A stretch of DNA of 64,000 bases from Bryoerythrophyllum caledonicum (Eukaryota; Streptophyta; Bryopsida; Pottiales; Pottiaceae), in contig OZ020517.1 in NCBI GenBank assembly GCA_963971425.1, positions 26,058,668-26,122,667 of the forward strand, written 5' to 3'. Positions within the stretch are counted from its first letter, which is position 1; every line of letters begins with the position of its first letter. This document shows, piece by piece, positions 7,230-29,276 of this stretch. A model generated the notes under the pieces. It worked only from the letters and a program-made list of their open reading frames with translations. It had not been told where the DNA came from and made no database searches. A program made the position numbers and the translations under genes.

Positions 7230-9612
7230 TTGTATTGCACACATTGATGCGGCAGTAGAAGTGGTTGCATCGATAAGTAGCTGTAGCAAGCTTCTTGGAC
7301 TTAGGAGCCTCCAACAACAACGTGACCACATATGTGGCCTCACTCATGCCCAGCGCTTCCACCTCGGCGAACGCCTATACCAAAATGGCGTTCCCATGAT
7401 ATCAAAAAAGAAGATGCAGTCTAATCAACTTCTCCATCCGCTTATCCAACTTCCAAAATGAAGATCTTCACCAGATGGCACTTTGTGAATACATCACCGG
7501 CCTTCACCAACAATCGTGCCAACCGAATATACAAAGTGCGACGGGTATCTTCATTTTTCTTGGCGGGAATCCTAGATGCGTTGCATGTTATCACGCCTGA
7601 ATCCCATGTACTCCACCTCCAGATGCGCCATGAATTGCACCAAAAGATTGAAGGCTGGCGGATTGCCAACCGCCATTGATGCCAACCGCCATTGATGCCG
7701 CACGTGTGGCTATGGCCAAACTGGATATGATCCTCGTGGCAACACTCTGCCTCGTGCTTCGTGGTCCACCTCTCGTATATCTGAAGGGCCTCCAGCTCCA
7801 AATGTTAGTGCAAGAGCTCAAACGCATAGCAGTTGTTAAACGACGACATCTGGTCGCGATTCTCTTTTGTCCAGGTCTGAAATCAGAGCCGCCAATCGAG
7901 CATGAAGATGCCTTTAGCCCGTCCCGAGAACTTGTCTTGCACGACATAACGAAGATAGTCGTCCATGTCATCAAACGTGCCCACACTCCAGACCCAGAGC
8001 CTACGGTTGGTATCCAACGCCAAAACATGCTCAAAAGTCTCGTTGGTATCCGACCCTTGCCCAAAGTCTATGGTTGAAGTACTCTCCAAGTAGTCTAGAA
8101 AATGGAGCAGTAATACCGGCTTCGTGTACTCACCAGAATCAAAAACCACCTCGGGATCTATCAATAGGTAATATCTAAAGGATAAGGTTATGAACGGGCA
8201 ATCTGCAGCTGCAAAACCACCAAACTTTGTGATTCACCGGTTATCACCTCCAGCTAGCAGAGGTCTAACCACAACCTCTTACATAAAAAGGTCTTGCCGG
8301 CCATAAAATCAACTTCACTTTAGAGTACCCTATTATAATCTAGAGACAATAAGAAATGGAGCCACCGAAAAACATCAACAACAAGCCCGCAACACGGGCA
8401 AGATACCGTAGAAGAATCCAGAAATGAAAATCAGATCCTCTCCTTCAACAACATAAAGTGGTAAATAAAAATGACCAGAGCCACTGGCGCAAACTTGTAG
8501 TGGATGGTCACTAGTTGCAAAACTTGCAACAACACAAAAGAAACATCCAAAGGTGTCCTTCCTGAAGTCTAAAACTAAGGAAGCACTGAGCTAATGCGGT
8601 CGTTGTGTTTACAAATACAAATCCCCCCAATGAAAAGCACACATTGGACGACAAACGCGTTCAACACCAATTTAACATCAAAATTAGATTAATGGTGAAA
8701 TGCCCCAAATATAAGCGTTAATTGCAGTCAAGACTGAGCTAAATTGCCCTAGTTACATACTTCCAAAGTTTAGACACTAATCTTTTTTTTTAACAACCCA
8801 CAGAAATGTGGTTTTGGAAAAAAAAATTCGACTAAAACTTTCATTTCCTGTAGATAGAAACCCATATGGAGAGGTCAAATCCAAAGTCGAAATTCAAAAA
8901 ATAAAATAAAAAATTAGGCAATATTTACTCACAGTTAAGTGAAATCTGCCCAAATTACAATTCCATCACCTGTGGATGAAAATTGCCTGCAGCGGATGAA
9001 TTTGCAGAAATGGATGAAAATTGACCGTAGAATAAATTTTTGCCGTGGATGAAAAATTACAAAATCACTGATCAGGTCCAACAACTGTCGTTCTTCTTCC
9101 AATTCTTACGCTGCTCACATCTTGCTCAAAAATTGTCCGCTTTGGGCGTCGTTTGTTGCATTGGCTCCGTCTTGACCCGCTCTACAACATCAATCTACTC
9201 ACTCAAAGTTTTTAAAAACTCATCCAAGCTTAAATTCAAGAACTAGAGAGAGGAACGTAGGAGGATCTTTGTCAAGTGAGTAACTAGTAAATCACAAGTG
9301 CACTCTACAAAAGAAGAATCAATGAGTGCAAGTAGTGCAAGAGTATGCGGTGCCTTTACTAATGATAAACAATCACTTACAAGCAAAGACAATCAATAAA
9401 CACTTATAAACTCATCCACAAAGCTTGACTTGACAAAGTCGTTAAGTCAAGGACGTGTGCGGCGCTATATGCACAGACACAACCTTAAGTGGATGGAAAT
9501 CATCCAAAGATGAATTTGGTACGCTACCGTACGTTCCTAAAACGCGTACATTAGTAATAAACTAATCTTCGCTAAAACACTACAATGTGGAGAGGCCCTC
9601 GACGCCACGTCC
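7230..9612 (-). mobile_element. Truncated Ty3/gypsy element, minus strand (copy 3)
   Basis: On the minus strand this reads LTR (about 9612-9244), untranslated leader (9243-8165), then a broken gag (8164 to about 7230), where it ends beside a MITE. The gag N-terminus carries the block RRLWVWSVGTFDDMDD, matching RRLRVWSVGTFDDMDN of the complete element at 12005. A later part (LELEALQIYERW) matches that element's LELEALQTYGRW. Frameshifts and stops interrupt it. The LTR shares the conserved 11-bp inverted-repeat arms (CTTGACTTAAC / GTCAAGTCAAG) and the post-LTR string CACTTGACAAAGA. Everything downstream of gag is missing. Confidence 0.75.
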
Positions 9613-10988
9613 TGCAATAGTTTGTATTTATGTAGTCCGGTGGTATTTCTTTATATTGTTGTCCTTTGACACATAGTACATCTGGTTTAAATTTGACATT
9701 ACAATGACATCTTTGGGTTCCACATTTGCATGGAAGTAGCCATGGAGAGACAGTGTTTTCTTGTGTAGAAGGTTTAGACAGTGTTTTCTTGTGTAAACTG
9801 TTGAAGGTTCCAGCGTTCATAAGTGTAGAGCACCCAAATTTGTTTAAGGAAACAATTAGTTATACGGATTTTCCATACCGCTTTGTTGTGTGTTTTGACT
9901 ATTAGTCTAGAATGTATGTGATGGTTTTGGCATTTAAGGAGTACGTGTAGCCATGGATTTGGATCCGTGGTGGTGCATATTAGGCATGTTATGGATGGAA
10001 ACCGTTCTATTTAAAAAATGAGTTGTTTGGAGCATTTTCCATGTATTGTCCAATACGAAATTTGATAAGACATGTTTGTAATTGTGGGGTTTTTCCAAAA
10101 AATTGTAGAGAGTTTGTTATCAATGTTGTTGTTACTGGTCCATTTCTCTATGTTGGGGAATCTTTCCGAGATAAAACTAAGGTTGTTAATTACATCTTAT
10201 TTTTTGAGATATTTGTCTAGAAATCTTATGGGGCCTTTGCCTCAATTGTCTTCCATAGGGAACAAACTATCTCTTTGGAAGTAGTATGGGAAACCCTCAA
10301 AAGCATTGAATGGATCATTAAAAAAACAAACATATTATAATTTAACAAACACGTAATTACACAACTGATAGCATATGCAAAAAAGGAAAAAATAATGCCT
10401 TGGATTTGTGTAGTCACACAACGTGGAACCAAAAGGGAATAACACCTGAAGTCACAAGTGGAGTGGAAGTCAAGACGGGACAACCTCCGGTACAAGTGAA
10501 AATAAATTCAAATTTGAGAGCAAAGAAAGACCGTAGATGGATACCACCCGCCTTTCTCTCCTTCACACTCAGTGAGGAGCTACTCAAAAAATGACATCCA
10601 CACTACTTGATTTATAAATGCTATAAGTCTCTACTCTAGATGAATATTTTTACCAACTATGTCTATAGTAATCCGCCTCTTTGAGTAATATAAATAGTTG
10701 TGCTCTTGGTAACTAATTGCATCAAAAGTAAAAAACTGTAGCATTTTAAAACCATGTAGTGTGGATACATTAAATGCCATTTTTAGAGTATTTTGAGGTG
10801 AATAGGAATATTGAAAATGAAATATCCTACGCGGTGGTAGTTTTTGTACATAATTAATTCAAAATAGTAGGTAGTCCAAAATTTTGGAAAATAAATTTCT
10901 TTTGACTAGGTGATTACCTATGTAATGTCAAGGTGCTACTTCTATAATGCATAGGTGATATCCATGTAATATTTAGTTGATACTCATT
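9613..10988. other. AT-rich spacer between two retroelement copies
   Basis: No gene is supported here. The stretch at about 10605-10690 (TTGATTTATAAA... GATGAATATTTTTACCAACT) recurs at 54084-54160 inside the DGAT2 gene, so part of this spacer is a dispersed repeat. Confidence 0.5.
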
Positions 10989-11352
10989 GTTTCACGGGAT
11001 GTGGCGTCGAGGACCACACCACATCTAGTGGTATTAGCGTAGGTTAGATTAGTCTAATCTACGTTAGCGTATGTGAGGACGTGCGTTCGACGCACCGTAG
11101 TCATCCGGTGCATGGATTTCATCCATCAAGGATTGCAGTTGTGTGTATACCGCCGCATACGTCCTTGACTTGACGTCTTTGTCAAGTCAAGCTTTGTGAG
11201 TGAGTTAGTGAGTGTTTAGTGAGTTCTTTGCTTGTAAGTGATGGTTTGTCATTACTAAAGGCTCCGCATTCACTACTTAGTTGCACTTGTTGATTCTTCC
11301 CTTATGAAGTGGGTGCCGCTTGACTTCTTGTGGAAAACACATGTATCTTTCA
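10989..11352 (+). repeat. 5' LTR of the methyltransferase retrotransposon
   Basis: Starts TGTTTCACGGGATG and ends near TATCTTTCA. It aligns along its whole length with 19417-19777, with scattered substitutions. It contains three palindromes: ACCAC/GTGGT near the start, a TTAGATTAG / CTAATCTA pair, and two 11-bp arms CTTGACTTGAC / GTCAAGTCAAG separated by 6 nt. Confidence 0.88.
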
Positions 11353-12004
11353 CTTGACAAAGACCTCCCATTTCTACTTCAATTTCCACCATTTTGCATT
11401 TGAAGAGTTTGTAGAAAATGGAAAGATTGGAGAAAGAATGGGTCACAAATTATAGTTTGTGTTAGTACTAGTCTTAGTGGTATTTGGAATCCTAAGTGTG
11501 AGAGAGGTACTCATGTTCATGTTCTGCGAGAGAAGCTCTTTTGGGAGAAGCAAGTCGTCATCGAGTTTGAAGTCCCGATTATTCATCCGAGTGTAGTCCA
11601 TTTGAGTTCTTATCGGGAGGGACAAACTTCATCCGTGCGAATAGAGATTGTGATCATCCACGGGCGCGAACAGGACGTGAGAAATGTGGGAGCCCCATAA
11701 AGGCTCGGGACTCCACTTGGGACGTGCTTGCGGGATAGAGACAAATCAAGGCGAGAGGCAAATCAAGACCGTTGACTAAGCACGAGCCACGATTTCAGGG
11801 ACAACAAGGCGTAGGGAGAGGGAGTAGACGGGTTGTTGGACAACGTTGTACTAGGGTGACATCCTTGGATGTCATAGGGCCTTGGAAGGGAGGGACCCAA
11901 AGGCAACAACAGATTAATGCGTCAACTCCCAGGTGCAGGTTGTCTGTTCGTACCCTTACCCTTTAGATAGCACCCGTAGATAGTTACCCGAAGGATTTTT
12001 CTTT
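11353..12004 (+). other. Retrotransposon leader
   Basis: Untranslated stretch between the 5' LTR and the gag start at 12005. The first bases (CTTGACAAAGACC) are also found after the LTR of the minus-strand copy. No canonical tRNA primer site beginning TGG is evident. No gene is seen. Confidence 0.5.
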
Positions 12005-13345
12005 ATGGTGAGTACGAAAAGTCGATATTACCATTCTCCTTCACCAGATTCTCCGGAGAATGCACCGGCTTCAGACTTTGGACCAGGGTCGGATATTGAC
12101 GAGGCTTTTGAGCCTATTTCGCTGTTGGATACCGACCGTAGGCTTCGAGTTTGGAGTGTGGGCACGTTTGATGATATGGACAACGATCACTGCCTGGTTG
12201 TGCATGATCGTATCTCAGGTCGGGCTGAGGGCATTTTCCTACCTGATTGGCGGCTTTGTTTCCAGACATAGATAAAAGAGAAGCGCCAGCGTTCACCGTC
12301 AATCAACGGCTGGTACGCATTTGAGCTTTTGCCCCAGTATTTGGAGCTGGAGGCGCTCCAGACCTATGGAAGGTGGTCGGTACCCTATGCGGAGGAGTTG
12401 CGTTTGGTTGAGGATTACTGGGGCGACCGGGTGGAGTTGGTGACTACGCTCAAGGAGAGTGCCGTTGCTCGTGTCCCGGCCTTTACCGATCAACCCAAGG
12501 AGGAGGGAGTCTCCTCTAGTGAGGATTCCAGGCAGAAGGGCATTAACCTAGTAGATGAGGCGTCCGGCATAGGAACCATGTCGCGTTTGGCCTAGGCCAT
12601 GCGGGCGGCATTGATGGCCGTTGGTCCGCCACCAATCTTTGACCCTCTGGCGCAGTTCATGGCGCACTTGGAGGTGGAGTATCAGGATGGTGGACTTGAT
12701 CACCCCCCGTCTTCTTTTTTATTATCACGGCAACGCCAGTTTGGCTCAGGCGTTTGCTGAAGTGGAAGCGCTTGATAGAGCGTAGGGCGTATCCGAGGCC
12801 ACAGATTTGGTCACGTCATTGATGGATGCTCCCAAGTCAAAGAAGCTTGCTACTGCGATGAGTAGCTTGGCGGAGGCACAACCTGAAAAGGTTGTGCATT
12901 GCAAGGCTTGTGGAGAACTCGGTCACACCAAAGGGGACCCGAACTGTTCCAAGAAGAAGAGGGTAGAGAAAGAGAAGGTGAAGCCCAAGACCGAGGCGGC
13001 TACGTCTGGTGACAAGGTTGTGGGCAAGGAGAAGAAGCTGGTTACTTGTTCTCATTGTGGCAAGTCCGGCCATTGTGATGAAATGTGCTTTGTTCTCCAC
13101 CCGGAGAAGCGGCCCGGTTCATCACGGGAAAATGACTTGGAGGCCAAAGTGGCGGAGTTGGAGAAGAAGTTGAGTGCGAATGCTTCTTTGGGACAAGTGG
13201 TGGACGCACGGGCTCTGGTGAAAAGTCGTGGTTCGTCCTCAGCCATGGATGCCTATTTGTATGGCACTTCTGGAGGGGTTGTGGCTGCAGTTGCCACTCG
13301 TGCTCAAACCACCCCCTTCATCCAGTGTGCCGGGAACTAGTGGTC
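12005..13345 (+). pseudogene. gag of the methyltransferase retrotransposon (broken)
   Basis: Begins with an ATG at 12005 in a frame opening MVSTKSRYYH. The capsid-like part contains RRLRVWSVGTFDDMD and LELEALQTYGRW, both shared with other copies. Two zinc knuckles follow: CKACGELGH...C (about 12900-12947, with a longer than usual last spacer) and CSHCGKSGHCDEMC (about 13049-13090), giving nucleic-acid binding of the CCHC type. Lysine-rich linkers flank them. Stops at 12269, 12593 and 12783 are all TAG, and frameshifts occur near 12700 and 13320. The copy at 24064 has the equivalent knuckle CWACGEAGH, which confirms the reading. Confidence 0.82.
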
Positions 13346-13844
13346 GTCCTAGCCACGTGGGATTATGGGACCACATCGGTCAGTCGCGGCTACCACTGTC
13401 TTTTGACATTGTAGATGCAGCTCCTCCTCGTGTCGCTCCTCCTTTTACTACCATACCACCAGTTTCTTCCACTCATGTAGATGCCGTACATTCCTTGGCG
13501 TACAAGGTGTTGCGGTTGCCGGTATTTGCCGGTGTGGACTTTTTTACACCAGATTTTCAACCATCCGGTGTATTTCACTTGGCGGGAAGCATGTTGGAGA
13601 GCAAGGTGCCCATGCCATCATTTCAGGTGTCACAGGCAGTGACGGCTCCACCCACTGAAAAGGATTTGGTGGCAATGAGGGCCAAGTTGGCGGTGGAGGC
13701 TATTTCTGCTTTTGAAGCCAATGCCACGTCCTCCCCTACTTTAGAGCCAACCGGAGATCAGTTATTGATTTCCGGAGTGGCTTATTTGTTTGATATTGCG
13801 GCCCGGTCGGCACGGGAGCAACGCGATGTACGCCCTGGGTAGTT

Positions 13845-14174
13845 CGTTTGGTGAATGACGACGGAGTGATGATAGTTGGCCGTACGGATGGCAACTCTAT
13901 TTGCACCACCCCTTTGCGGGTTATGTTAGACTCTGGGGCTCAGCTTGTGATGATTGACAAGCAACTTGTCTAGGATTTGGGACTTGGCGATGCCGATTTG
14001 GAGCCTTGCCCATTTATCATTGTTACATCGATCAGGGGCACGGAGAAGGCGATGGGCTACGCCCGACACCCTCTGCAGTTGATGTTTGGCGTCGACACGG
14101 GTCCGTTGTTCTCCCATGTCTCCTTTCGATGGGCTGTGACTGGTGCCACCAACTACGATATTTTGGTGGGCTAG
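13845..14174 (+). pseudogene. Retroviral-type aspartic protease segment of pol
   Basis: The frame reads VMLDSGAQLVMIDKQLV, with the DSGA active-site motif at 13929-13940, the hallmark of Ty3/gypsy proteases that mature Gag-Pol. A TAG stop interrupts LV*DLG at 13971-13973; the copy at about 25230 has CAG there. A second TAG at 14172 sits before QALYPLG, where the copy at about 25428 reads QQILYPL. A linker of about 400 bp (14175-14589, including TEEAWIR) joins it in frame to the methyltransferase domain. Confidence 0.78.
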
Positions 14175-14589
14175 CAGGCACTATATCCACTTGGATTTGG
14201 AGTGGATAACTCGACGGAGGAGGCGTGGATTAGGACATGGTGGTTTGCTGGTGATGGCAGGAAAGAACTCATCCCCGTGGTCTTCGCAGGTAGCGCGGTG
14301 ACTTCGACGACGGACGCTATGTTTGGATGCAATGCTCTGGCATCAGACTTGCCGTGTAGTTCTTCACTTTTGGAGGAAACATATGCATTTATGTCTGGGG
14401 TGGAGGATTCACACGAGCACCTACCATTGGCGATCCCTGTACGTCATTGCAAGGATCCGTTTCCGCCATGGGGGACGCCGTTGGAGCTCACTCATCGGAG
14501 TGGGGAGATTGTGGACGCTCTTGATGCTCTATCGTTGTTAGTGGACTCTTCGACCCCGTTGTTGGCTCGCACTATTCATTGGCAACCAC

Positions 14590-15610
14590 CTGATGGAGGT
14601 ATTACCCATGTAGAGTTATTTGCCGGTATCAGTACGAGGCTCGCGGCTATGTTGGAAGCCGGGCTCAAGGTACGGCGGTATATCCCTGTGGATAGTGGCT
14701 TTGCAGCCAATTGTGCCGCTCACCATCACATTCAGCGTCTTCTGGCATTGTATCCAGAGTAGTTACTACCTTCTGCGATTTGAAGAAGTTTTGGCAAGTT
14801 GCCACATGATGTGACGTTGATCAGTGAGGATGACCTTTGCCGGTTAGGTCACGTGAAGTTGGTGATTGCCGGATGGCCTTGCCAAGGCCATTCACGGGCG
14901 GGCAATAGACGTGGCTTGGATGATCCACGGTCGGGTCTCTTTGCGGATTTGTTCAGGCTTATCCAGTGGTGGATTATCCACCAATCCACGCCACCGAGGT
15001 ACATTTTTGAAAATGTATCCCTATTGGGGGATACAGGGACGAAGAAGCGTGAGGATGGGGCATACATCCATCACCTTTCTGGTCCTCCCACGTTTGTTGA
15101 TGCCGCGGCTTTGGGCTTTTACGTCCATCGGCCACGTTGGATTTGGACCAACATGGCATCATCCACACGGTTGCTGACCTCTGCACTTGCTCAAATGCAA
15201 CAGCCCATGCGCCGTGAGGTTGATGACATCTTGGACAACCACCGAGTGTCCACGGAGGTTACCAAGGATGATGAGCCACCATTGGCGGTGGTCAACCGCG
15301 TTGATTTCACACGAGGGGCGTTTCCCACGTTGTTGTGCTACCCGAGGTCTTTTGCCTTTAGGACATGCGGTCCAGGCATGGTTTGGGATTCATCTTTCTA
15401 AACTTACGAGGAGCCTTCTACCGATGAGAGTGAGCGGACGATGGGCTTTTTGATTGGCACCATCGCTACACCAGATCTCACTAATTGCCAACAACGTTTA
15501 TTGTTCGGCCAGGCCATTGACCTGAACACCCTAGTTTGGGTGTGTGGCCTTTGTTTTGCCATTCAGCAACGTCGGCGTGACCATTCTAGCGTGTTGGGGG
15601 CAGACTCTAA
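14590..15610 (+). pseudogene. DNMT3-like cytosine C5-methyltransferase domain within retrotransposon pol
   Basis: Canonical C5-methyltransferase motifs occur in the order I, IV, VI, VIII, IX, X. Motif I is VELFAGISTRLAAMLEAGL (FAG codons 14619-14627). Motif IV is AGWPCQGHSRAG, with the catalytic Cys codon at 14880-14882. Motif VI is FENV at 15006-15017. RPRWIWTN stands where DNMT3 proteins have a RARYFWGN-type motif. The block GAFPTLLCYPRSFAFR resembles the FP... target-recognition stretch. ERTMGF (about 15430) and LLFGQAID match motifs IX and X. Unrearranged order argues against DRM. Family role: methylation of cytosine at carbon 5 in DNA using S-adenosylmethionine. The frame is continuous with the protease side. 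It is inactivated by TAG at 14760, TGA at 14781, TAA at 15399 and a frameshift near 15620. The copy at 25860-26420 has the same domain, so it belongs to the element rather than to a chance insertion. Confidence 0.88.
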
Positions 15611-15849
15611 TGGTCAGAGGCAGCAGTGCCATATCTCACGGAGATTGAGGAATCCGAGTTGTTCTTTTGTTTGGAGGCATGTAGCGGAGGAGCTTTGGCT
15701 CAACGGATCTTTGCCGCTTTGGCAGAGGACTTTGGCCGTGAGGATGCTCGGGATATCTTTTCCCAGTTTTATCATCACAACATGGGATTTTCTGTAGATC
15801 CCGTGAGTGAAGGGTCTGGAGGCATTAGTGCTCTCTCTGCTACCAAGTA

Positions 15850-17420
15850 GCAATCACCGGCCGTGTCGATACGCGGTGAGTCTACTACGGTGGAGAAGGA
15901 GACCACGGAGTTTGATGATTGGCCTATGGATTTGGGGCCACATCTTACCGGTGCCGAGGCACAAAGGGTACGGGCGTTTATTTGTTCGTATCGTAGTTGT
16001 TTTGCCTTTAGGCTCCATGATTTAGAGGGCTATAGAGGCAAACCTATTCACATTCAATTGGAGGACGACCACTCGATCTTTCGACGACCGTACAAGCTCA
16101 GTCTCTCTGAGAAAGTTGGGATTCAGACTCGTTGTTAGGAGTTGTTGGTCACCAGCTTGATTGAGCTCTCCAACGGCGAGTACGCTTGTACCATGGTGAT
16201 GCCATCGAAGAAGGGCATCTTTGGCAATTGGACGGAGAAGCGGATGTGTGGGGATTATAGGTTGGTCAATCAAAAGACCAAGTCAAATCGGTATCCCATG
16301 CCTACACCAGAGGAGTTGTTTGATGCGTTGGGACACGCCAAAGTATTTAGTACTATGGGTTTGCGGTTTGGTTACCACCAATTACCATTGATGGTGGACG
16401 ACCAGGTGAAGACCGCGTTTTGGGAAGTTGATCTGGATGGAAGAGATCAGCTCTACCATTGGAAGTTTCTCCCATTTGGCCTCAAGAACGCACCCGCTGA
16501 GTTTCAGAGGGTGATGGACCGGGTGTTGACCGGTTTAACGTTTGCCCGATGCTACATTGATGATGTTATCATTTTTAGTAGCAACCAACACGAGCATGTA
16601 AGGCATCTTCTGGCGGTGTTTAAGAGGCTACGGTAGTGGGGATTGCGCTTGCACCATGGCAAATACAAATTCTTCCATGAGCGGTTGCCATACTTGGGAC
16701 ATATGATTGTTCCAGGAGGTCTTGGCGTGCAGCAGGCGAAGGTTGATGCGCTACAGAACATCCCGGCCCCAATCGACGTATCAAGGCTTAGAGCTTTTCT
16801 TGGTCTGACAAATTACTATCGTTGGTTTGTCAAGAACTTTAGCTTGATTGCCAAGCCGTTGGCTATCCTCACGGGGAAGGATCAACCATGGACTTGGGGA
16901 CGGGAGCAGGAGCAGACGTTTGCTACTTTGAAGCTGAAGCTCGGTTCAGCGCCCGTACTGCGGCGTCCAGATGCTACACGGCCTTTCTACTTGCACACAA
17001 ATTGGACTGCGGTAGGATTGGGAGCCGTGTTGACTCAATAGGGTGATGAGGGACATGAGAACATTGTGGTGTTTGCTTTTAGGAGCAACAACAATGCGGA
17101 GTCCAACTATTCGTCCTATGAGAGAGAAGCTTTAGCCGCCGTTTGGGCCATAGCTCATTTCAAATCCTACTTGTATGGGCAACGTTTTACCATGGTGACC
17201 GACCACCAACTTTTGAAGTGGCTCATGGAGTCTGACAAGCTTACTGGCAAGCTTGTCAGGTGGGCTTTGTTGCTTCAGGAGTATGATTTTGAGATTGTGC
17301 ACCGGGCGGGCATCACTAACCTGGATGCGGATGGACTATCTCGTAATCCAAGTTCATCGGAGGAGGATTTGAGTGGTGCCTGGTGGCATGGAGACTATAA
17401 TAAGGAGTCGGTCCCGGGGT
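15850..17420 (+). pseudogene. Reverse transcriptase and RNase H of the retrotransposon
   Basis: RT contains CGDYRLVNQKT, FLPFGLKNAPAEFQ and the catalytic YIDD (16553-16564), then a connection LRAFLGLTNYYRWFV. RNase H contains YSSYEREALAAVWAI, TDHQLLKWL and ADGLSRNP. These are textbook Ty3/gypsy blocks and would copy the element RNA into DNA. Motif A is damaged: FSTMGLRFGYHQL has Gly (16358-16360) where the family has the metal-binding Asp. TAG stops at 15848, 16136, 16634 and 17039 all fall where Gln fits. Upstream, 15630-15850 is an element-specific linker also present in copy 2. Confidence 0.9.
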
Positions 17421-17639
17421 GGCATGCAGCAGCCTACCTCTCATTGATTTCCGGATCGATATCGACGTTGCCTGATATAGCAGCCGATGGGGAACCGAAC
17501 AAGGCCCAGGTTGTTAGCGACGTGTGGGAAGACGTTCCAGTCTTGCACAAGCTGCAAAATGGCACACTTCCGCCCGCTCTTTCGGCCATGGAGCGTGATA
17601 GAGTTGGGCACTGAATAGCAAGGTTCCTTTGGAAGAACG

Positions 17640-18290
17640 ACCTTCTATTTCGGGTGTGGCCAGATGGGACTAGGCGCATAGTTCCAAGGCCGAATCGGAG
17701 GGCTTCGTTGGTACGACAAGTACACGAAGACTTGGGACATTTTGGCGTGCGGTGTATTCATTTGATGCTGCGCAGCCAATATTGGTGGACCGGCACGTAT
17801 TAACAAGTCGCCACGTACGTTTCACGGTGTGAAGTCTATGATCGGGTCAGATCCAACTTCAACACGTTGTCACCACAGTGGAGCCTTTGTCCATCATGGG
17901 TTTGGGCTATCGTTGGTCTTTAGATTTTGCCAAACCGCTTGTTGTCACCCCACATGGAGCCAAGTACGTGTTGGTGATGGTGGAGCACTTCAGCAAGTGG
18001 ATTGAGTTTGTGGCACTACCACAAAACTCCTCGGAGTTGACAGCCATGGCATTTCTTGACCGGGTGCTTGCTCGTTTTGGAGCCCCAACTGAGGTATTGA
18101 CTGACCAAGGGCGTGAGTTCCTTGGTGCTTTCAAGGCTTTGTGCACCAAAGTTTTGATTGACCACCATACCACTTCTAGGTATCATCCGGAAGCGGACGG
18201 TTTGGCAGAGGGTGTGGTTCAGACCGTCAGGCGTGGACTACGAAGTATAGATTACTTTAGGGTGGCCACCGTGATTGGGATCTAATGATA
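17640..18290 (+). pseudogene. Integrase core of the retrotransposon
   Basis: The HHCC region reads HEDLGHFG...C, but the last Cys of the CxxC pair is replaced by Tyr (CEVY). The catalytic core follows after a frameshift near 17870: WSLDFAKPL gives the first Asp, VLTDQGREF the second, and ADGLAEGVVQTV the Glu. Upstream stops are TGA at 17612 and TAA at 17803. The integrase would insert the cDNA copy into host chromatin. The end of the core is followed by further stops near 18285. Confidence 0.85.
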
Positions 18291-18299
18291 CCATGGATC

Positions 18300-18992
18300 A
18301 CCATAGGATACTGATTTAGCGAGTGGGCCTCTTTGGCCGCTTTCAGTTCGTATCAGTTGTTGTACAAACGGAAGCCGATTCTACCCAGTTCTATACGGGA
18401 GAAGTTGGCCCTAGTTGTAGACTTGGATGATCCAGAGGTCTAGATCTAGTGTCTGTGTGATTAGGCGGAGTTCTTCAAGCGGGCCATGCCAATGGCCGTG
18501 GAGAATTTATCCATCACTTAGCATCGCGACACGTTACGGTACGCTCGCATTCGCAGCGGCGCTTACCGACCTCAGTCGCGGCATTTCTTTCTTGGATATT
18601 ACGTTTATTTGCAGCGTAAGGCGCCTACGACGTTGGACGTCAAGGCCAGGCGTACCATTCTTCATGTGAAAGATGTATTGCCCGACGGCATCTTGTTGCT
18701 GGAAGGCAAAGATGGCCGGGAGTGTCGGGAGCACTCCAAAAACTGCGCGCCTTGCCATTTGCCCATTGATGACTCCGTACATCATGAGTTGGCCATTGTG
18801 CCACATGGTCTTCCGTGTTTTGTGTGTGGTGAGAAGAAGGGTGCGGCTACCATGTTATTATGCGACCGTTGTTAGCGTGGATGGCATATGGCTTGCTTGA
18901 CGCCGCCACTCTCTACTCTACCGCCTGGGGATTGAACTTGCCCTCGTTGTAGAAGGTCTTCGAGTCACGTTTCATCAAATGAAATAGCTTGA
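18300..18992 (+). pseudogene. Integrase C-terminal extension ending in a PHD finger
   Basis: In one frame this reads through four TAG codons (18441, 18447, 18462, 18520) into a Ty3-type segment (YQLLYKRKPI, AEFFKRAMPMAVENL, HFFLGYYVYL) and then a PHD zinc finger at 18817-18950. The finger has CFVCG, LLCDRC, GWHMACL, TPPLSTLPPGD and TCPRC: C4HC3 spacing with the usual WH and PP elements. TAG at 18873 sits directly after CDRC, and TGA at 18933 replaces the Trp normally found before the last Cys pair. Family knowledge: PHD fingers read histone H3 tails. Chromoviruses usually carry a chromodomain at this place, so the finger may target integration. Pol ends at the TGA at 18990. Confidence 0.87.
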
Positions 18993-19416
18993 TTTTATCT
19001 TGGACATGTCATTGGTATGGTGTCCTGCCATCGAGTTGAAGTTCGTGGTTTTGTTTTAGGGATAGGCTACGTAGAGATTGACCAAGGGGATTGGCAACAA
19101 AGTTGCCTAAGGCGATTAAGGATGGGGCTCACAGTGCACCCCGCCTACCCTCTTTTAGTTACTTCTCTATTGGTTTATTAATGCCGGAAGGGATTACATC
19201 TTCAACTGGATGCGTGCAGTTGTTGCAGCGGCATCACCGTGGCGACTGTCTACATAGTGTTGTTTGGTCCTAGCCGGATAGAGGGTCTCTTTATCCGCTA
19301 GAAGGGCACTTGAGGGTGTACTACGTATACTTGTTTTAGTGTATGTTTTTTGTTTATTTGATGTTGGTTGTGATTCTCGATCTATTGTGTTTAGCGATCT
19401 TTGTTTACATGACAGT
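18993..19416 (+). other. Retrotransposon 3' untranslated region with block A
   Basis: Non-coding stretch between the pol stop and the 3' LTR. Its last part (19311-19404) is repeated almost exactly after the LTR at about 19780-19873. No polypurine tract is obvious just before 19417. Confidence 0.5.
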
Positions 19417-19777
19417 TGTCACGGGATGTGGCATCGAGGACCACACCACATCTAGTGGTGTTAGCGTAGGTTAGATTAGTTTAATCTACGTTAGTTTATG
19501 TGAGGACGTGCATTCGACGCACCGTAGTCATCCGATAGATGGATTTCATCTACCTAGGATTACGGTTGTGTATACCGCCGTATACGTCCTTGACTTGACG
19601 TCTTTGTCAAGTCAAGCTTTGTGAGTGAGTTAGTGAGTGTTTAATGAGTTCTTTGCTTGTAAGTGATGATTTGTCATTAGTAAAGACTCCGCATTCACTA
19701 CTTAGTTGCACTCGTTGATTCTCCCCTTGTGGAGTGCGTGCCGCTTGACTTCTTGTGGAAAACACATGTATCTTTTC
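19417..19777 (+). repeat. 3' LTR of the methyltransferase retrotransposon
   Basis: Starts TGTCACGGGATG and ends near TATCTTTTC. It aligns with the 5' LTR at 10989-11352, palindromes included. It is flanked on both sides by copies of the same block of about 94 bp (19311-19404 and 19780-19873), which is not the normal anatomy of an LTR element. Confidence 0.87.
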
Positions 19778-19984
19778 GTTGAGGGTGTATTACGTATACT
19801 TGTTTTAGTGTATGTTTTTTGTTTATTTGATGTTGGTTGTGATTCTCGATCTGTTGTGTTTAGCGATCTTTGTATACACAACAATTGCGTCCGAATCACT
19901 GTGTCAAAGAATAATAATTCTTTCAACATAGAGGTGTTGAAAGCCACCACTAGGTACGGTAGGACAAAATATTTTGTTCAAATT

Positions 19985-20400
19985 ACAGGTGGTATAACCT
20001 CTAAATTTCTTTGACAATTTCACACCAAAAACACTTCAAAATGATGATCCTAATGCAATGAGAAAGGAAGGAAACAAAAACTTGTATTTCTAATTTTAAC
20101 CATAGGATCTCAATCAAGCCTTATTAATTTGCATACTCACATAATTTCATAAACTTTGACCGCAATGATTGAAAGATTATTATAGTGAAATAAAAAATTG
20201 GTTCACTTTCTTCCTTGTGTTGAGTGGATTAGCAGACTTTGACTTCACGTGGTGCTAAATTTTTGATCTACACAAGGTCTAAATTCATTACCATGTTATT
20301 CTCCAAGATGGCATAACTTTTAGTCCATATGCCCAAGGAGGGGTATGATTTTTACACCTCTTGTCTTCTTGTCTTTTGCATTGTTGTACAAAGTTTCAAG
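19985..20400 (+). repeat. Partial copy of the TTAACCCC-type repeat family
   Basis: Shares long stretches with 28327-29276, for example CACACCAAAAACACTTCAAAA, TAACCATAGGATCTCAAT and AGACTTTGACTTCACGT. Only the left part of the family is present and no matching right end is seen. Confidence 0.5.
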
Positions 20401-21091: not shown

Positions 21092-21520
21092 ATGGCGAAC
21101 GCGGCGTCGGGCATGGCGGTCAGCGACGAGTGCAAGCTCAAGTTCGGGGAGTTGCAGCGCAAGAAGGCGTTCCGCTTCATCGTCTTCAAGATCGACGAGA
21201 AGCTGCAGCAGATTACGGTCGAAAAGAGTGGCGCGCCCGATGCCACCTACGAGGATTTTGTGGCGTCGTTGCCGGAGAAGGATTGCCGCTACGGCGTGTA
21301 TGACTTCGAGTACACGTCGGAGGACGGCGTTACGAGCTGCCAGAAGAGCAAGATTTTCTTCATTGCGTGGTCCCCGGAATCGTCGCGCGTCAGGGCGAAG
21401 ATGATCTACGCGAGTTCCAAGGAGGTGTTCAAGCGCGAGTTGAACGGGATCCACTACGAGCTGCAGGCGACCGATCCCACGGAGATGGATCTGGAGGTGA
21501 TCAAGGACCGTGCCAAGTAG
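21092..21520 (+). CDS. ADF: Actin-depolymerizing factor (ADF/cofilin)
   Basis: Single-exon ORF of 142 aa from the ATG at 21092 to TAG at 21518-21520. The ADF-homology domain fills the protein: [15 protein letters not shown] at the N-terminus with the Ser that plant kinases phosphorylate to block actin binding, [33 protein letters not shown] (the long actin-binding helix region), and [16 protein letters not shown] at the C-terminus. Length and ends match plant ADFs (about 139-146 aa). Role: severs and depolymerizes actin filaments in the cytoplasm. Angiosperm ADF genes usually have an intron just after the start codon; none interrupts this reading frame. GC-rich relative to the surrounding transposon DNA. 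The TAG stop is at the family's normal end, which shows that TAG is a real stop codon in this genome. Confidence 0.96.
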
Positions 21521-23679: not shown

Positions 23680-26600
23680 CAATGACTCAAGCCAAGCAAA
23701 CAATATTGGCTACGGTTGGCGAACCACCGGTTTTCGACCTTCTTCAGCTTTTCCTTGCGCATTTGGAGCTGGAGGATGGGGGATTTTGGCGCAATTAGAT
23801 ACAACCCATCTAAGATGTCCGCCATGAGATGGAGGATACTCCCCGCACCATCTACGCACGTTTAGCGTGGTTTGCAGTGGAGTCATGGGGGTTTATTGGA
23901 GAGCTAGTTGATGAAGATTTTTATCTCCAAGATTGAGAAGTGGTTGCTTGACTTGGCTACGCTGCGGATCATCCTCAACTACAATGGTCACGCCACAATG
24001 GCCCTAGCATTTGCAAAGGTTGAGTTATACAATTGGGCCCTTTGTTAATTTGACGCTTTAGACATGATAGCGTTGATGACGGAGGCTGCCAAAGTCAATA
24101 AGCTAGCCACGACGACGAGGAGTTTGAAGGAAGCACAACTTTATGAGGTTGTGCATTGTTGGGCGTGTGGCGAGGCCGGCCACATCAAAAATGACCTCAA
24201 CTCTTTGAAGAAAATGAAGGGGGTAGATGTAGAGAAAGCCAAGTTGAAGGCCGAGGCTACCAAGGCTAAAGAAAAGGTTGGGGGAATCAAGAGCAAGCAA
24301 ATGAAGTATTTTTATTGTGGCAAGCTCAACCAAGAGATGGCAATTGTATTGTCTATCATCCAAAGAAACGCCCTTCATAGGACAAAGAAAAGGCATGAGA
24401 GGCTAAGATTGCGGAGTTGCAAAAGTGATTCAATGCACTGGTTTTCATTGGATTAGACGGCTGGAACACGGGTACCAATGCGAGACATGTCTAGGTCTTC
24501 TTCCACAAATGCCTACATGTTTGATCTAAATGTAGAAGTAGTGGCAACAGCTGCTACTTTTGCCCAATCCATAGACCAGACTATGGCACCTTCCATGGAT
24601 ACAGTGGGCACTGGTGGTCGCTCCCATCAAACTGAATTACCTAACAAGATCGGATAGTTTTGGCTACCGTTTTCCTTTGGCATTGCGAATGCAGTTAATT
24701 TTAGCTAAGCTTTTTATCCGATCTCTGCACCACATGGTGCAATCACTCAGAGCGACGTCGCACTCATTTGAATACAAGGTATTTAATTTGGTTGCTTGTA
24801 TTTTGTAATGCAGACTTTATGATACCAAATTTTTGATCTATATGTGTGTTCCACTTAACAAGCAGTGTGTTGATGGGCAAGGTGCCCATGCCTTTGATGT
24901 ATGTGACTCAAGTGGTGACTACACCTTTTGAGGAAGACTTGCTTGATTTGCAGGCTAAATTTGCGGCGGATGCCATTGTGGCATTTGATGCCAATGTCAC
25001 ATTATACCTCCGATTTGACCTTCCACTGATGAGTCATTGATTTCCGTCAAGGCTAATTAATCCGCCATTGCGGCCTTATATGTCAGAAATAGTGCAATAT
25101 GCCCTTTGATTGGTATAGTTGGTCATCGACAACGATGTGATGGTTATGGCCGTATAGACAATAGTTTTACCTAGGCCACTCCGATCCATACGATGATAGG
25201 CTCCACGGCTCAACCAATGATGATTGGCATGCAACTTGCCCAGGATTTAGGCTTGGGAGCTACTGACCACGAGCCTTGTCCATTCATGATTGTTACTTTG
25301 ATAGCCGACACATAGAAGGCAAATAGGTTACCTGTTGGAGTTGACTATTTGAGTAGTTCCTCGTCCATTGTACTCCCACGTAACAATTTAGTGTGATGCG
25401 ATCGATGTCACCAACTAGGGCATTATGGTGGATCAACAAATACTCTATCCACTTGATTTTAGGTTGGATATTTGGACGGAAGAGGCTTGGATTAGCCGAG
25501 GATGGTCTCCCGATGATGGTAGAAAAAAACTCATCCCAATTGTCTTTGTTGCTAGTGCAATGACATTGTTGATGGATGCTATATTTGGTCGAAGTGTCAT
25601 AGCCTCCAATTTGCCATGTGGTTCTACGCTTCTGGAGAAGACATTTGCGTTAATGTCCGTTTAGCGGAATCATGCAATGGAGCACCAATAGAAGTCTCTC
25701 CAAGACATTGCAATGATCTACTTCTTCCATGAGGTACTCTATTGGAGCATTTGCGTCATAGTTGAGAGGTAGGTGCTTTGCTTGAAGCTCTACTTCTCTC
25801 CAAGGACTCTTCTTTGTCTACATTGGCACAACCTTTCTAGTGGCATCCACCAAAGGAAGGTATTACCCTTGTGGAGCTCTTCGTCGGCATTGGCACGGGT
25901 TTGACGGTTGTGTTGAAGGCAGATTTAAGGTGCGGCAATACATCCACGTGGATCATGGATTTGTATCCAACCAAATAACCTAACATCATATGCAAAGGTT
26001 ATTGGCTTTGTACTCAGAGCAACTACTACATTTTGCTATTCACGGTTGCTTTGAAAAATTGTCTTGCAATGTGACTCTCATCAATGAGAACAATTTTTGA
26101 ACGTTGGGCCACGTAATTTTACTCACTATGGGATGGCCTTACCAAGGCCATGCTTGTGTTGACGGCGGCGGTGGTGGATTGGATGACCTCCATTTAGGTC
26201 TCTTTGCAGACTTGACAAAAACTCAACTAATGGTGGTTTAGCCACAAAGTGACACTGTCTGGTTACATTTTTTTTGAGAATGTACCTCCATTGGATGACA
26301 CTAGGGTAAAAATTTGTGAGAATGGTGCATACATCCATCACCTTCTTGGTCCTCTCCCTTCTGTAAATGCCGCCACGCTGGGATCCTATGCCCATTCACC
26401 AGGTTGGATTTGAACCAATTTGGCTTCTTTGGCGATGCGTACTACTACTTTGTCTAAGGTGCAACGACCCGCTCATTGTTGGGTCGATGACATCTTAGAT
26501 GACCATCACACTTCCTCAACTGTAACCAAAATCAATGAGTCACCATAAGCAATGAACTATGTAGACTTCACTCGAGGCATTTCCGACATTGTTGTTATAC

Positions 26601-27125
26601 TCTGGGTTGTTTTCAATTTGACCATGCCATTTGGGCATGGTTTGGGATTCTACTTTCTATATGAAGATTCTTTGGCCAATGAGCTGTAGCGGGTGAAGGG
26701 CTTCCTGACATATACCATTGCCGCTCTAGAATCTTCTAGGGGCCAATGCCCTTCCTTGTAGGGATAAACATTTGATTTCAACAAGTCGATTTGGGTTTGT
26801 GGCATTTGCTTCTAGTGCAACGCCATCAACGTAACTATCTGCACGTTTTGAGGACAAACCACAATGATCAAGGGACAATGGAGCCACAATTTACGGAGGT
26901 AGAAAAATTAGAGCTATTGCATTGTTTATAGTGGCATGCAACATATGAACTTTGAGCTAAACGTGCTGATATAGTTGTTTGAGTCAAAGATGTTAGGAAC
27001 ATAGATGCAGAAGACATTGCTTCTTGGGTCTTTCAGCATAATATGTAGTGTTCCATAGACACCATTGGCAAGGATGCTAGGGGCATAGATGCACTATTTG
27101 CTATACAATAGTAGTCAGTGGCCAA
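23680..27125 (+). mobile_element. Truncated copy of the methyltransferase retrotransposon (copy 2)
   Basis: Starts inside gag (PPVFDLLQLFLAHLELED, matching PPIFDPLAQFMAHLEVE of copy 1) and runs through zinc knuckle (CWACGEAGH, about 24150), protease-region remnants (about 25200-25290), the TEEAW linker (about 25460), methyltransferase (25860-26420 and beyond) and the linker before RT (to about 27125). LTRs, RT, RNase H and integrase are absent at both truncated ends. Stops are dense, so it is older or more mutated than copy 1. Its value is comparative: it often retains CAG or CAA where copy 1 has TAG. Confidence 0.8.
25860..26420 (+). pseudogene. Degenerate cytosine methyltransferase domain of copy 2
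   Basis: Motif I reads LVELFVGIGTGLTVVLKADL. The region around motif IV reads MGWPYQGHA, so the catalytic Cys is replaced by Tyr (codon TAC at 26140-26142, TGC in copy 1). FFENV (motif VI) and PGWI*TN follow. Several stops and frame changes interrupt it. It cannot be a functional enzyme as it stands. Confidence 0.75.
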
Positions 27126-28326: not shown

Positions 28327-29276
28327 TTAACCCCTATGGTACCGTGACGGTTTTACACCAGAAACACTTCAAAATTGTTGGATTCTAGTGCAATGAACAA
28401 AGAAGGAAACAAAAACTTTGATTTCTAGTTCTGACCATAGGATCTCAATTAATACTTACTAAGTAATATATTTACAAAATATCATAAACTTTGACCGCAC
28501 GGATTGAAAGATTATAGTGTTTGAAGTTGAGCAAATGGTTCATTTTCTTCCCTGCATTCAATGGATCAGTAGACTTTGACTTAACTTGATGTCAAATTTC
28601 TGCACTACATAAGGTCCAAATCCATTACCATCTTGTGAAGCATTATGTTAGTTCCTTATACTCCAATTTTTAGAGGTAGAGGACGGGTGTAGCATATTCA
28701 AAACAAATGTGCAAGGAGTGGAGGTTCAAAATTTGCCAATTTACACTTTAAATTTTTGTGAACTTAATATGTTTAGATTGATAATCCAAATGTCCAATAA
28801 GAAGCTTTACACCACATATTGTTGTGGAAAAAATAAAAAGTGAAAAATATAAAGATATCTAGGTTTTATGTAGAAAAGGAGAAGTTCTTTTGGTACCTTG
28901 CCTGACAATGAGCGCCAATGTGTGAAAATGTTTGACTTGGGTTGGTTTGCTCTTTTTCACTAAAGACAGGATTTTTTTTGACAATATGAAGGGAAACAAT
29001 ATTACTTGCGAGTATTCAAAATCTCACATTCAATAGAGTGCACTAGCAAAAGTTTTTGGAGGTGCCTAAACTGCGCGCTTTCCCCATTTGAAATTCAAAA
29101 CCCTAGAACTTTTTCAATACATGTCAGAGTTAGGAAAAAATTGTTTTCTTACTAAGGTCTTGGTAATGCCTTTTTATATTAAAAATTTCAAAGAGGAATG
29201 TTGGAAATTGACACCATAGGAACTTGACCAAACTTTCAAAAAGCCCATTTCTGACACTTGGTCATTTAGGGGTTAA
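28327..29276 (+). mobile_element. TTAACCCC-family non-autonomous element (about 950 bp)
   Basis: Left end TTAACCCCTATGG, right end CATTTAGGGGTTAA. The same element is found inverted at 39846-40792 and in the same orientation at 42061-42983, with shared internal blocks such as CATAAACTTTGACCGCA and AGACTTTGACTT. No ORF of note. The short termini are complementary, so I treat it as a TIR-type element, but class and target duplication are unresolved. Confidence 0.6.

What the first reader, a model, noticed from the sequence alone, without database searches (positions are those of the whole stretch)
14590..15610. Cytosine DNA methyltransferase embedded in retrotransposon pol, between protease and RT
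All main C5-methyltransferase motifs are readable in canonical order (FAG, PCQ, ENV, the RWIWTN region, ERTMGF, GQAID), in frame with the protease side, and the domain is shared by a second copy at 25860-26420. Seen in sequence: the motifs and the two-copy conservation. Established: DNMT3 keeps this motif order while plant DRM is rearranged, and (from memory) de Mendoza and colleagues 2018 reported DNMT-carrying retrotransposons in charophytes and dinoflagellates. Inference: this is a DNMT3-type domain captured by a Ty3/gypsy lineage that might methylate its own DNA or host DNA.
Basis: partly seen in the sequence, partly recalled or inferred. Interest (0 to 1): 0.9.

Follow-up and report, generated by a model that had tools for sequence, protein, structure and literature searches.

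The report
Moss retrotransposon carrying a DNA methyltransferase
A jumping element that is still young and abundant in a moss genome carries its own DNA-methylating enzyme, placed just before a stop signal that plant ribosomes are known to leak through, so the enzyme would be made with the particle's coat protein rather than with its copying enzyme.

Summary
Window 14580-15542 encodes a C5-cytosine methyltransferase, DNMT3-like by PDB match and motif order, between protease and reverse transcriptase of a Ty3/gypsy element (10990-19883). This copy is dead (three stops in the domain, plus frameshifts), but the family is abundant with many open copies, and the domain is under purifying selection. 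All 89 copies checked, of 99 scored RT matches, carry it. The kind is known: KnitGypsy-Dnmt3 of the alga Klebsormidium (2018). New here, as far as I could search: (1) a moss host, with named relatives in Marchantia, Sphagnum and Closterium; (2) a UAG stop in the tobamovirus-type leaky context (UAG-CAA-YCA) after the MTase and before RT, in two subfamilies and the window copy, so the enzyme would be made at Gag level; (3) a PHD finger after the integrase; (4) DIRS-like split repeats together with a DDE integrase, TG...CA ends, 4-bp target duplications and a 13-nt self-primer that covaries between subfamilies. Best explanation: particle-borne MTase methylating the element's new DNA. Enzyme activity and readthrough are inferred, not tested.

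The parts
10990..19883 (+). Decayed Ty3/gypsy-type element with split repeats (A1-internal-B1-A2-B2); 4-bp target duplication ATTG at 10986-10989 and 19884-19887
   Evidence: repeats; termini; domains
10990..11357 (+). Repeat A1 (left end); 92.8% identical to A2 over 359 bases
11175..11187 (+). Putative self-primer GTCTTTGTCAAGT inside A1 (also in A2 at 19600)
11352..11364 (+). Putative primer-binding site ACTTGACAAAGAC, perfect complement of the self-primer, at the end of A1
11984..15847 (+). ORF A, broken by frameshifts and stops: Gag (CCHC knuckle) - protease - methyltransferase - tail
   Evidence: tblastn with an open copy; Pfam of open copies
13860..14279 (+). Aspartic protease region of ORF A
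14580..15542 (+). DNMT3-like C5-cytosine methyltransferase domain, 3 in-frame stops, motifs readable; 81% identical to an open copy
15848..15856 (+). UAG stop in the leaky context UAG-CAA-UCA, at the place of the conserved stop between ORF A and ORF B
15851..18989 (+). ORF B, broken: RT - RNase H - integrase (H2C2, DDE core) - PHD finger
16037..17296 (+). Reverse transcriptase and RNase H
17645..18243 (+). Integrase core (rve)
18792..18989 (+). PHD finger at the C-terminus of ORF B, two in-frame stops in this copy (seen by alignment to an open copy, not by a Pfam scan of this copy)
19310..19418 (+). Repeat B1
19419..19782 (+). Repeat A2
19779..19883 (+). Repeat B2 (right end)
23691..27108 (+). 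Second, much older fragment of the same kind: Gag-PR-MTase pieces in several frames, no RT piece found

Best explanation
It is a decayed member of a young, high-copy Ty3/gypsy-type retrotransposon family of a moss, which took up a DNMT3-type cytosine methyltransferase long ago. Shown from sequence: ORF A encodes Gag, protease and methyltransferase and ends at UAG-CAA-YCA; ORF B continues in the same frame with RT, RNase H, integrase and a PHD finger. Inferred: most ribosomes stop at the UAG and make Gag-PR-MTase, while a minority read through and make the full polyprotein, so each particle holds many methyltransferases per RT. Inferred: the genomic RNA primes its own minus strand through the 13-nt self-primer, and the particle-bound methyltransferase methylates the new double-stranded DNA before or at integration (probably at CG, as SymbioDIRS-Dnmt3 does in yeast). 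The copy thus enters the genome already looking like host heterochromatin, and the PHD finger helps choose the chromatin in which it lands.
For: DNMT3 affinity: best PDB matches are DNMT3A, 3.2e-15, and DNMT3B, 1.3e-8; DRM2 aligns over the motif I-IV part only. Motifs IV, VI and X in 18 of 18 open frames. Purifying selection: MTase dN/dS 0.05-0.20 in the seven pairs with measurable dS (L009 against L020: MTase 0.05, RT-RH 0.02, gag 0.08). Presence: 81 of 99 RT matches have a listed MTase 1.2-3.0 kb upstream, and 8 of 8 fetched of the other 18 carry it, 6 nearly whole and 2 partial. Stop: same type in 17 of 17 fetched copies whose ORF A ends there; TAG in 99 of 100 listed subfamily-2 sites and 95 of 100 listed subfamily-1 sites; next six bases fit CARYYA in 99 of 100 listed. 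The motif is known to leak in plants (PMC2754532 and PMC3542737, passages). PHD finger. Self-primer: 7 of 7 elements, two compensatory differences between subfamilies. Integration: 4-bp target duplications in 6 of 6 examined. MTase and RT trees agree on the main groups.
Against: No expression, readthrough or methylation was measured. The KnitGypsy-Dnmt3 domain showed no activity in yeast, which the authors call inconclusive because human DNMT3B was also inactive there (section 10). The stop could persist partly because copies are young and share descent; 3 CAG, 1 TAC, 1 TTG and 1 TAA occur among the 200 listed sites. L019 has Gag to RT in one frame and L018 has MTase to integrase in one frame. 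Relatives P0213 and P0214 carry PR, MTase and RT in one uninterrupted protein, so the leaky stop is not a feature of the whole group. RNA folding 3' of the stop was not consistently stronger than shuffles (z -0.5 to -2.1). C-to-T excess at CG and CHG in the window copy (15.0% and 15.7% against 8.8% at CHH) shows methylation footprints but not which enzyme made them.
Confidence: 0.6

Rival explanations
1. The methyltransferase acts in trans on host chromatin (for example at integration sites or at other elements), not on the element's own cDNA.
For: Gag-level expression would release much enzyme. DNMT3 enzymes are de novo methylases, and SymbioDIRS-Dnmt3 domains methylate yeast chromosomes when given a nuclear signal (section 10).
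Against: Fusion to Gag and protease, and inheritance together with RT, fit a role inside the particle better. No methylome data here.
Confidence: 0.2
2. The domain is kept for a non-catalytic or RNA-directed role (nucleic-acid binding, RNA methylation, particle structure).
For: It sits on the Gag side of the stop. The K. nitens domain showed no activity in yeast.
Against: The PCQ and ENV motifs are intact in 18 of 18 open frames, and the DNMT3-type motif order is kept.
Confidence: 0.15
3. The UAG is an ordinary stop and ORF B is made another way (splicing, reinitiation, separate promoter).
For: No direct readthrough data. A few copies have a sense codon there.
Against: ORF B lies in the same frame directly after the stop in 16 of the 17 copies (L021 has a further stop early in ORF B), and the stop-plus-hexamer matches the tobamovirus-type leaky context in two subfamilies whose neighbouring tail is heavily diverged (dN about 1.1-1.3).
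Confidence: 0.12
4. A chance or passenger insertion of a methyltransferase into some copies, without function.
For: The window copy and the copy at 23691-27108 are both dead.
Against: Present in all 89 copies checked, dN/dS 0.05-0.20, and relatives in liverwort, Sphagnum and Closterium.
Confidence: 0.03

Closest known systems
KnitGypsy-Dnmt3 of Klebsormidium nitens (de Mendoza et al. 2018, PMC5890265; sections 9-11 and passages seen)
   Same: DNMT3-type, unrearranged methyltransferase in an LTR Gypsy retrotransposon with a repeat layout like DIRS elements; conserved catalytic residues; purifying selection.
   Different: Host here is a moss. The MTase lies before a leaky UAG, on the Gag-PR side. 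PHD finger, target duplications and self-primer are described here. The paper's main text has no hit for PHD, readthrough, Gag, protease, primer binding or target site duplication, and its one 'stop codon' hit concerns premature stops in LINEs; its figures and supplements were not seen.
SymbioDIRS-Dnmt3 of Symbiodinium (same paper)
   Same: Retrotransposon-borne DNMT3 domain with a DIRS repeat layout; shown to methylate CG in yeast.
   Different: DIRS element with tyrosine recombinase; here a DDE integrase with 4-bp target duplications.
Self-priming Ty3/gypsy elements such as Tf1 (recalled, not fetched)
   Same: Primer-binding site complementary to the element's own RNA rather than to a tRNA; integrase with a chromatin-reader domain at its end.
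   Different: Split repeats, methyltransferase, PHD finger instead of chromodomain, and a leaky stop.
Tobamovirus-type (Type I) leaky stop; rice gypsy RIRE2 cited as a readthrough candidate in PMC2754532 (passage)
   Same: UAG-CAR-YYA; a gypsy element thought to use a leaky stop.
   Different: Here the stop lies after a methyltransferase. Where RIRE2's stop lies and whether it uses the same hexamer was not checked.

Membership tests
Ty3/gypsy LTR retrotransposon | Domain order PR-RT-RNase H-integrase (DDE) | tested here: met
   Pfam of two open copies; order; window mapping. The methyltransferase is inserted between PR and RT
Ty3/gypsy LTR retrotransposon | TG...CA ends with short target-site duplication | tested here: met
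   4-bp duplications in 6 of 6 examined elements, read by eye; the window copy's first TG is mutated
Ty3/gypsy LTR retrotransposon | Two simple LTRs at the ends | tested here: not met
   A1-internal-B1-A2-B2 in C2, C11, C14, C7, C847, C872 and the window; for C3 only the 3' repeats were seen
Ty3/gypsy LTR retrotransposon | RT placed in a tree with reference gypsy elements | not tested
   Only relatives carrying a methyltransferase were in the trees
DIRS / Ngaro | Split repeats | tested here: met
DIRS / Ngaro | Tyrosine recombinase instead of DDE integrase, no target duplication | tested here: not met
   rve core and H2C2; 4-bp duplications
DNMT3 | Unrearranged motif order I-IV-VI-VIII-IX-X with PCQ/ENV-type catalytic motifs | tested here: met
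DNMT3 | Groups with DNMT3 in a tree of all C5 methyltransferases | tested here: inconclusive
   Best PDB matches are DNMT3A/B; no tree with host DNMT3 or DNMT1/2/CMT was built
DNMT3 | De novo DNA methylation activity | not testable with these tools
   -
DRM | Rearranged motif order | tested here: not met
   Linear order; DRM matches stop before the ENV motif
KnitGypsy-Dnmt3-like elements | DNMT3 domain within the polyprotein of a Gypsy element with a DIRS-like repeat layout | tested here: met
   comparison with text
KnitGypsy-Dnmt3-like elements | Sequence kinship with the K. nitens element | not tested
Type I leaky stop | UAG followed by CAR-YYA | tested here: met
   17 of 17 copies
Type I leaky stop | Measured readthrough | not testable with these tools
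   -
Self-priming (Tf1-type) elements | Primer-binding site complementary to the element's own transcript | tested here: met
   13-nt perfect complement in 7 of 7 elements; 0-1 of 1000 shuffles reach it; control windows at most 10. Transcript start not known

The most novel reading that the evidence does not exclude
These elements are 'epigenetic writer-reader' retrotransposons: each particle is built from a coat polyprotein fused to a DNMT3-type methyltransferase, so methylation of the new DNA happens inside the particle at coat-protein stoichiometry, while the integrase carries a histone reader (PHD). The partnership goes back to a capture before mosses, liverworts and Closterium parted, and was kept ever since, with a self-primed, split-repeat DDE element as its vehicle in mosses.
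Probability: 0.4. Interest if true: 0.8.

Novelty: new variant of a known kind. Interest (0 to 1): 0.62.

Why it matters
Transposons normally flee DNA methylation; here a family with many open copies carries the enzyme itself. The layout seen here suggests when and how much enzyme would be made, and turns the open question 'what does a retrotransposon gain from a methyltransferase' into direct tests in moss and Marchantia, which are laboratory plants. It also suggests that the Gypsy-DNMT3 partnership is not an oddity of one alga but an old, maintained feature of streptophyte genomes. Finally, it joins traits usually kept apart: DIRS-like split repeats, a DDE integrase and self-priming.

Tried and rejected
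Considered and rejected: DRM-type enzyme (motif order linear). Bacterial restriction-type methylase (named bacterial hits are far weaker, E about 1e-6, than the best unnamed ones at 6e-95). DIRS element (DDE integrase and target duplications). tRNA primer: no TGG at the end of A1 in the five copies viewed, and the 13-nt self-complement fits better. RNA structure as the main readthrough signal: no consistent effect in four copies. Excess of TAG among decay stops as proof of CHG methylation: one copy's RT region has 17 CAG codons against 3 CGA and 3 CAA, so codon make-up may explain much of it; a direct C-to-T count was used instead.

A literature search for bryophyte retrotransposon DNMT3 gave 0 papers; of 9 papers found by a second, two were looked at by passages (PMC12344493; PMC6453930) and no bryophyte case was seen there; the other seven were seen as listings. 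Searches on gypsy elements with a PHD finger, split repeats with integrase and leaky gypsy stops gave listings, of which PMC2754532 and PMC3542737 were looked at by passages.

Dropped or unchecked rows: 10 of the 18 RT matches without a listed MTase were not fetched. One search used the 124 MTase places and 8 of the 150. The 99 RT matches are the best of 5585 candidates. The 20 copies were picked mostly for long open frames; L018, L019 and L028 do not enter the 17 stop contexts, and L018 and L028 do not enter the 18 motif counts. In those 18 my motif VIII pattern failed in 2 and the ERERAMGF pattern in 3. Only the first 100 matches of each pattern search are listed (of 124, 168 and 116). The 19-row RT and MTase trees hold only relatives long enough in both domains (Sphagnum P0233 is not among them); P0236 and P0237 have long branches.

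Full report
What is there. The window lies in a 437-Mb genome of 894 contigs, the largest of chromosome size. An actin-depolymerising-factor gene in the window (21092-21517) is 77% identical to that of the moss Ceratodon purpureus, the best named hit; unnamed environmental sequences reach 89%. In a tree it lies in an 11-row group with Ceratodon (98/95).

The element. Window 10990-19883 is one insertion flanked by the 4-bp duplication ATTG. Its repeats are split: A1 at the left end, then B1-A2-B2 at the right. The same layout was found in other copies of two subfamilies. Subfamily 2, the window's own, is 9.7-10.0 kb long in the copies measured, with A about 364 and B about 107 bases. Subfamily 1 is 11.8-12.0 kb, with A about 370 and B about 235. 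A1 and A2 are 98.6-100% identical in the six other elements but 92.8% in the window copy, so those copies are young and this one older. Ends are TGTCA...ACGACA, and 6 of 6 examined elements have 4-bp target duplications (read by eye).

The methyltransferase. Window 14580-15542 carries the motifs in linear order with three in-frame stops. In open copies the domain matches DNMT3A at 3.2e-15 (L009) and DNMT3B at 1.3e-8 (L015). PCQ, ENV and GQA[MI]D are intact in 18 of 18 frames examined. Motif I fits a strict pattern in 9 of 18; three of the other nine were looked at and have small variants such as FGGIGS. Between two lineages of subfamily 1 the domain has dN 0.073 and dS 1.59, against 0.018 and 1.02 for RT-RNase H and 0.142 and 1.85 for gag; over the seven pairs with measurable dS the MTase ratio is 0.05-0.20 (Nei-Gojobori, own script). 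That is strong purifying selection; linker parts of ORF A are looser (up to 2.5 in one close pair with few changes).

Is it in most copies? Of the 99 scored RT matches (best of 5585 candidates), 81 have a listed MTase upstream. Eight of the other 18 were fetched and all eight have it, six nearly whole and two partial. Ten were not checked.

The stop. Twenty copies were fetched, picked mostly for long open frames. In 17 of them ORF A (Gag-CCHC-PR-MTase; 1353-1371 aa stop to stop in 15, 1108 in two) ends in a UAG, and in 16 of the 17 ORF B continues directly in the same frame; nine have ORF B whole at 1041-1047 aa (RT-RNase H-integrase-PHD). The context is CAA-UAG-CAA-CCA (in one copy CAG-UAG) in subfamily 1 and AAG-UAG-CAA-UCA in subfamily 2. 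L019 has Gag to RT in one frame with CAG at the stop site, and L018 has MTase to integrase in one frame. Genome-wide, with the codon left free, 99 of 100 listed subfamily-2 sites (124 in all) are TAG and one is TTG. Of 100 listed subfamily-1 sites (168 in all), 95 are TAG, 3 CAG, 1 TAA and 1 TAC. With the next six bases free, 97 of 100 listed subfamily-2 sites (116 in all) are CAATCA, two more fit CARYYA and one does not. The window copy keeps the motif at 15848. Shared descent explains part of this, and no control codon was counted. Against that, the two subfamilies are heavily diverged around the site (tail dN 1.1-1.3) and yet share the stop and hexamer type. In the environmental relatives P0189, P0190, P0193 and P0194 ORF A ends at the same ...SATK; P0195-P0203 also end after the MTase but with other last residues, and the DNA after those ends was not available. 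P0213 and P0214 run on without a stop. UAG-CAR-YYA is the tobamovirus-type motif (PMC3542737, passage), and TMV and BNYVV contexts gave 32% and 11% readthrough in plants (PMC2754532, passage). Hence the inference that the enzyme is made at Gag level.

Replication anatomy. At the end of A1, 13 bases are a perfect complement of a stretch inside A: ACTTGAGAAAGAT in subfamily 1 and ACTTGACAAAGAC in subfamily 2 and the window. Both partners differ between subfamilies at two matching places; 7 of 7 elements show it, 0-1 of 1000 shuffles reach it, and 207 control windows in each of two elements reach at most 9 and 10. This points to self-priming as in Tf1 (recalled). A G-run lies directly before B1 in the four copies viewed, two per subfamily. 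The B1/A2 junction holds the palindrome GACAGCTGTC in the open copies, that is, the two element ends joined with two extra bases. Inference: DNA is first made with a B-A repeat at both ends, circularised, and cut by integrase at the B/A junction, which would give the A...B-A-B form.

Relatives. A search with an open copy's MTase region found 49 proteins, among them Marchantia polymorpha (for example Mp_4g09160), Sphagnum fallax and Closterium, the rest mostly unnamed environmental sequences. By domain order, 10 show PR-MTase-RT, 4 MTase-RT without a PR match, and 7 (P0220, P0221, P0222, P0224, P0230, P0231, P0232) have the MTase after RT; many others end before RT. RT and MTase trees of 19 rows agree on the main groups: the window with L015, Marchantia with subfamily 1, Closterium apart. 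So the domain travelled with RT. The five rows with the MTase after RT form one RT clade (100/99) and a weaker MTase clade (86/85). Sphagnum appears in the larger MTase tree only, next to Marchantia. Horizontal transfer between hosts was not tested. Several relatives also end in a PHD finger.

Decay. At 7732 sites where three young copies agree, the window copy has C-to-T changes at 15.0% of CG, 15.7% of CHG and 8.8% of CHH cytosines, against 4.6% for A-to-G: a footprint of CG and CHG methylation, by whichever enzyme.

Known or new. DNMT3-bearing Gypsy elements with DIRS-like repeats were described in K. nitens in 2018 (PMC5890265; abstract, sections 9-11 and passages seen). A 2025 survey (PMC12344493, passages) speaks of streptophytes and dinoflagellates and, in the passages seen, of no bryophyte case. 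I found no paper on bryophyte cases, the leaky stop in these elements or their PHD finger in the open-access library; subscription papers and supplements were not searched.

Noticed in passing
L001 (G000:C14:16014858-16018817): A complete bacterial-type Dcm cytosine methylase (TIGR00675, 3e-69) next to an IS4/5-type transposase in a stretch with 63% GC inside a chromosome-sized contig: mis-assembled bacterial DNA or a recent transfer.
   Followed up: partly
10990-19883 and L009-L036: Split repeats of DIRS type on an element with a DDE integrase, TG...CA ends and 4-bp target duplications; the internal B/A junction is a 10-bp palindrome holding both element ends.
   Followed up: partly
11175-11187 with 11352-11364: 13-nt self-primer and primer-binding site that covary between subfamilies.
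   Followed up: yes
L009:962-1609 and the same place in other subfamily-1 copies: An open frame of 161-248 aa between A1 and Gag; the L009 one has no Pfam match. It overlaps ORF A in another frame in some copies and is separated from it by a single stop in others.
   Followed up: no
P0220, P0221, P0222, P0224, P0230, P0231, P0232 (environmental sequences): Relatives with the methyltransferase after RT instead of before it: a second position for the same domain.
   Followed up: partly
20046-20297 and 28381-28634: A pair of further repeats (79-82% identical), lying 8335-8337 bases apart, beside the gypsy element and beyond the second fragment; not identified.
   Followed up: no
21092-21517: Uninterrupted 142-aa open frame of an actin-depolymerising factor, about 1.2 kb beyond the element; used to place the host among mosses.
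   Followed up: yes
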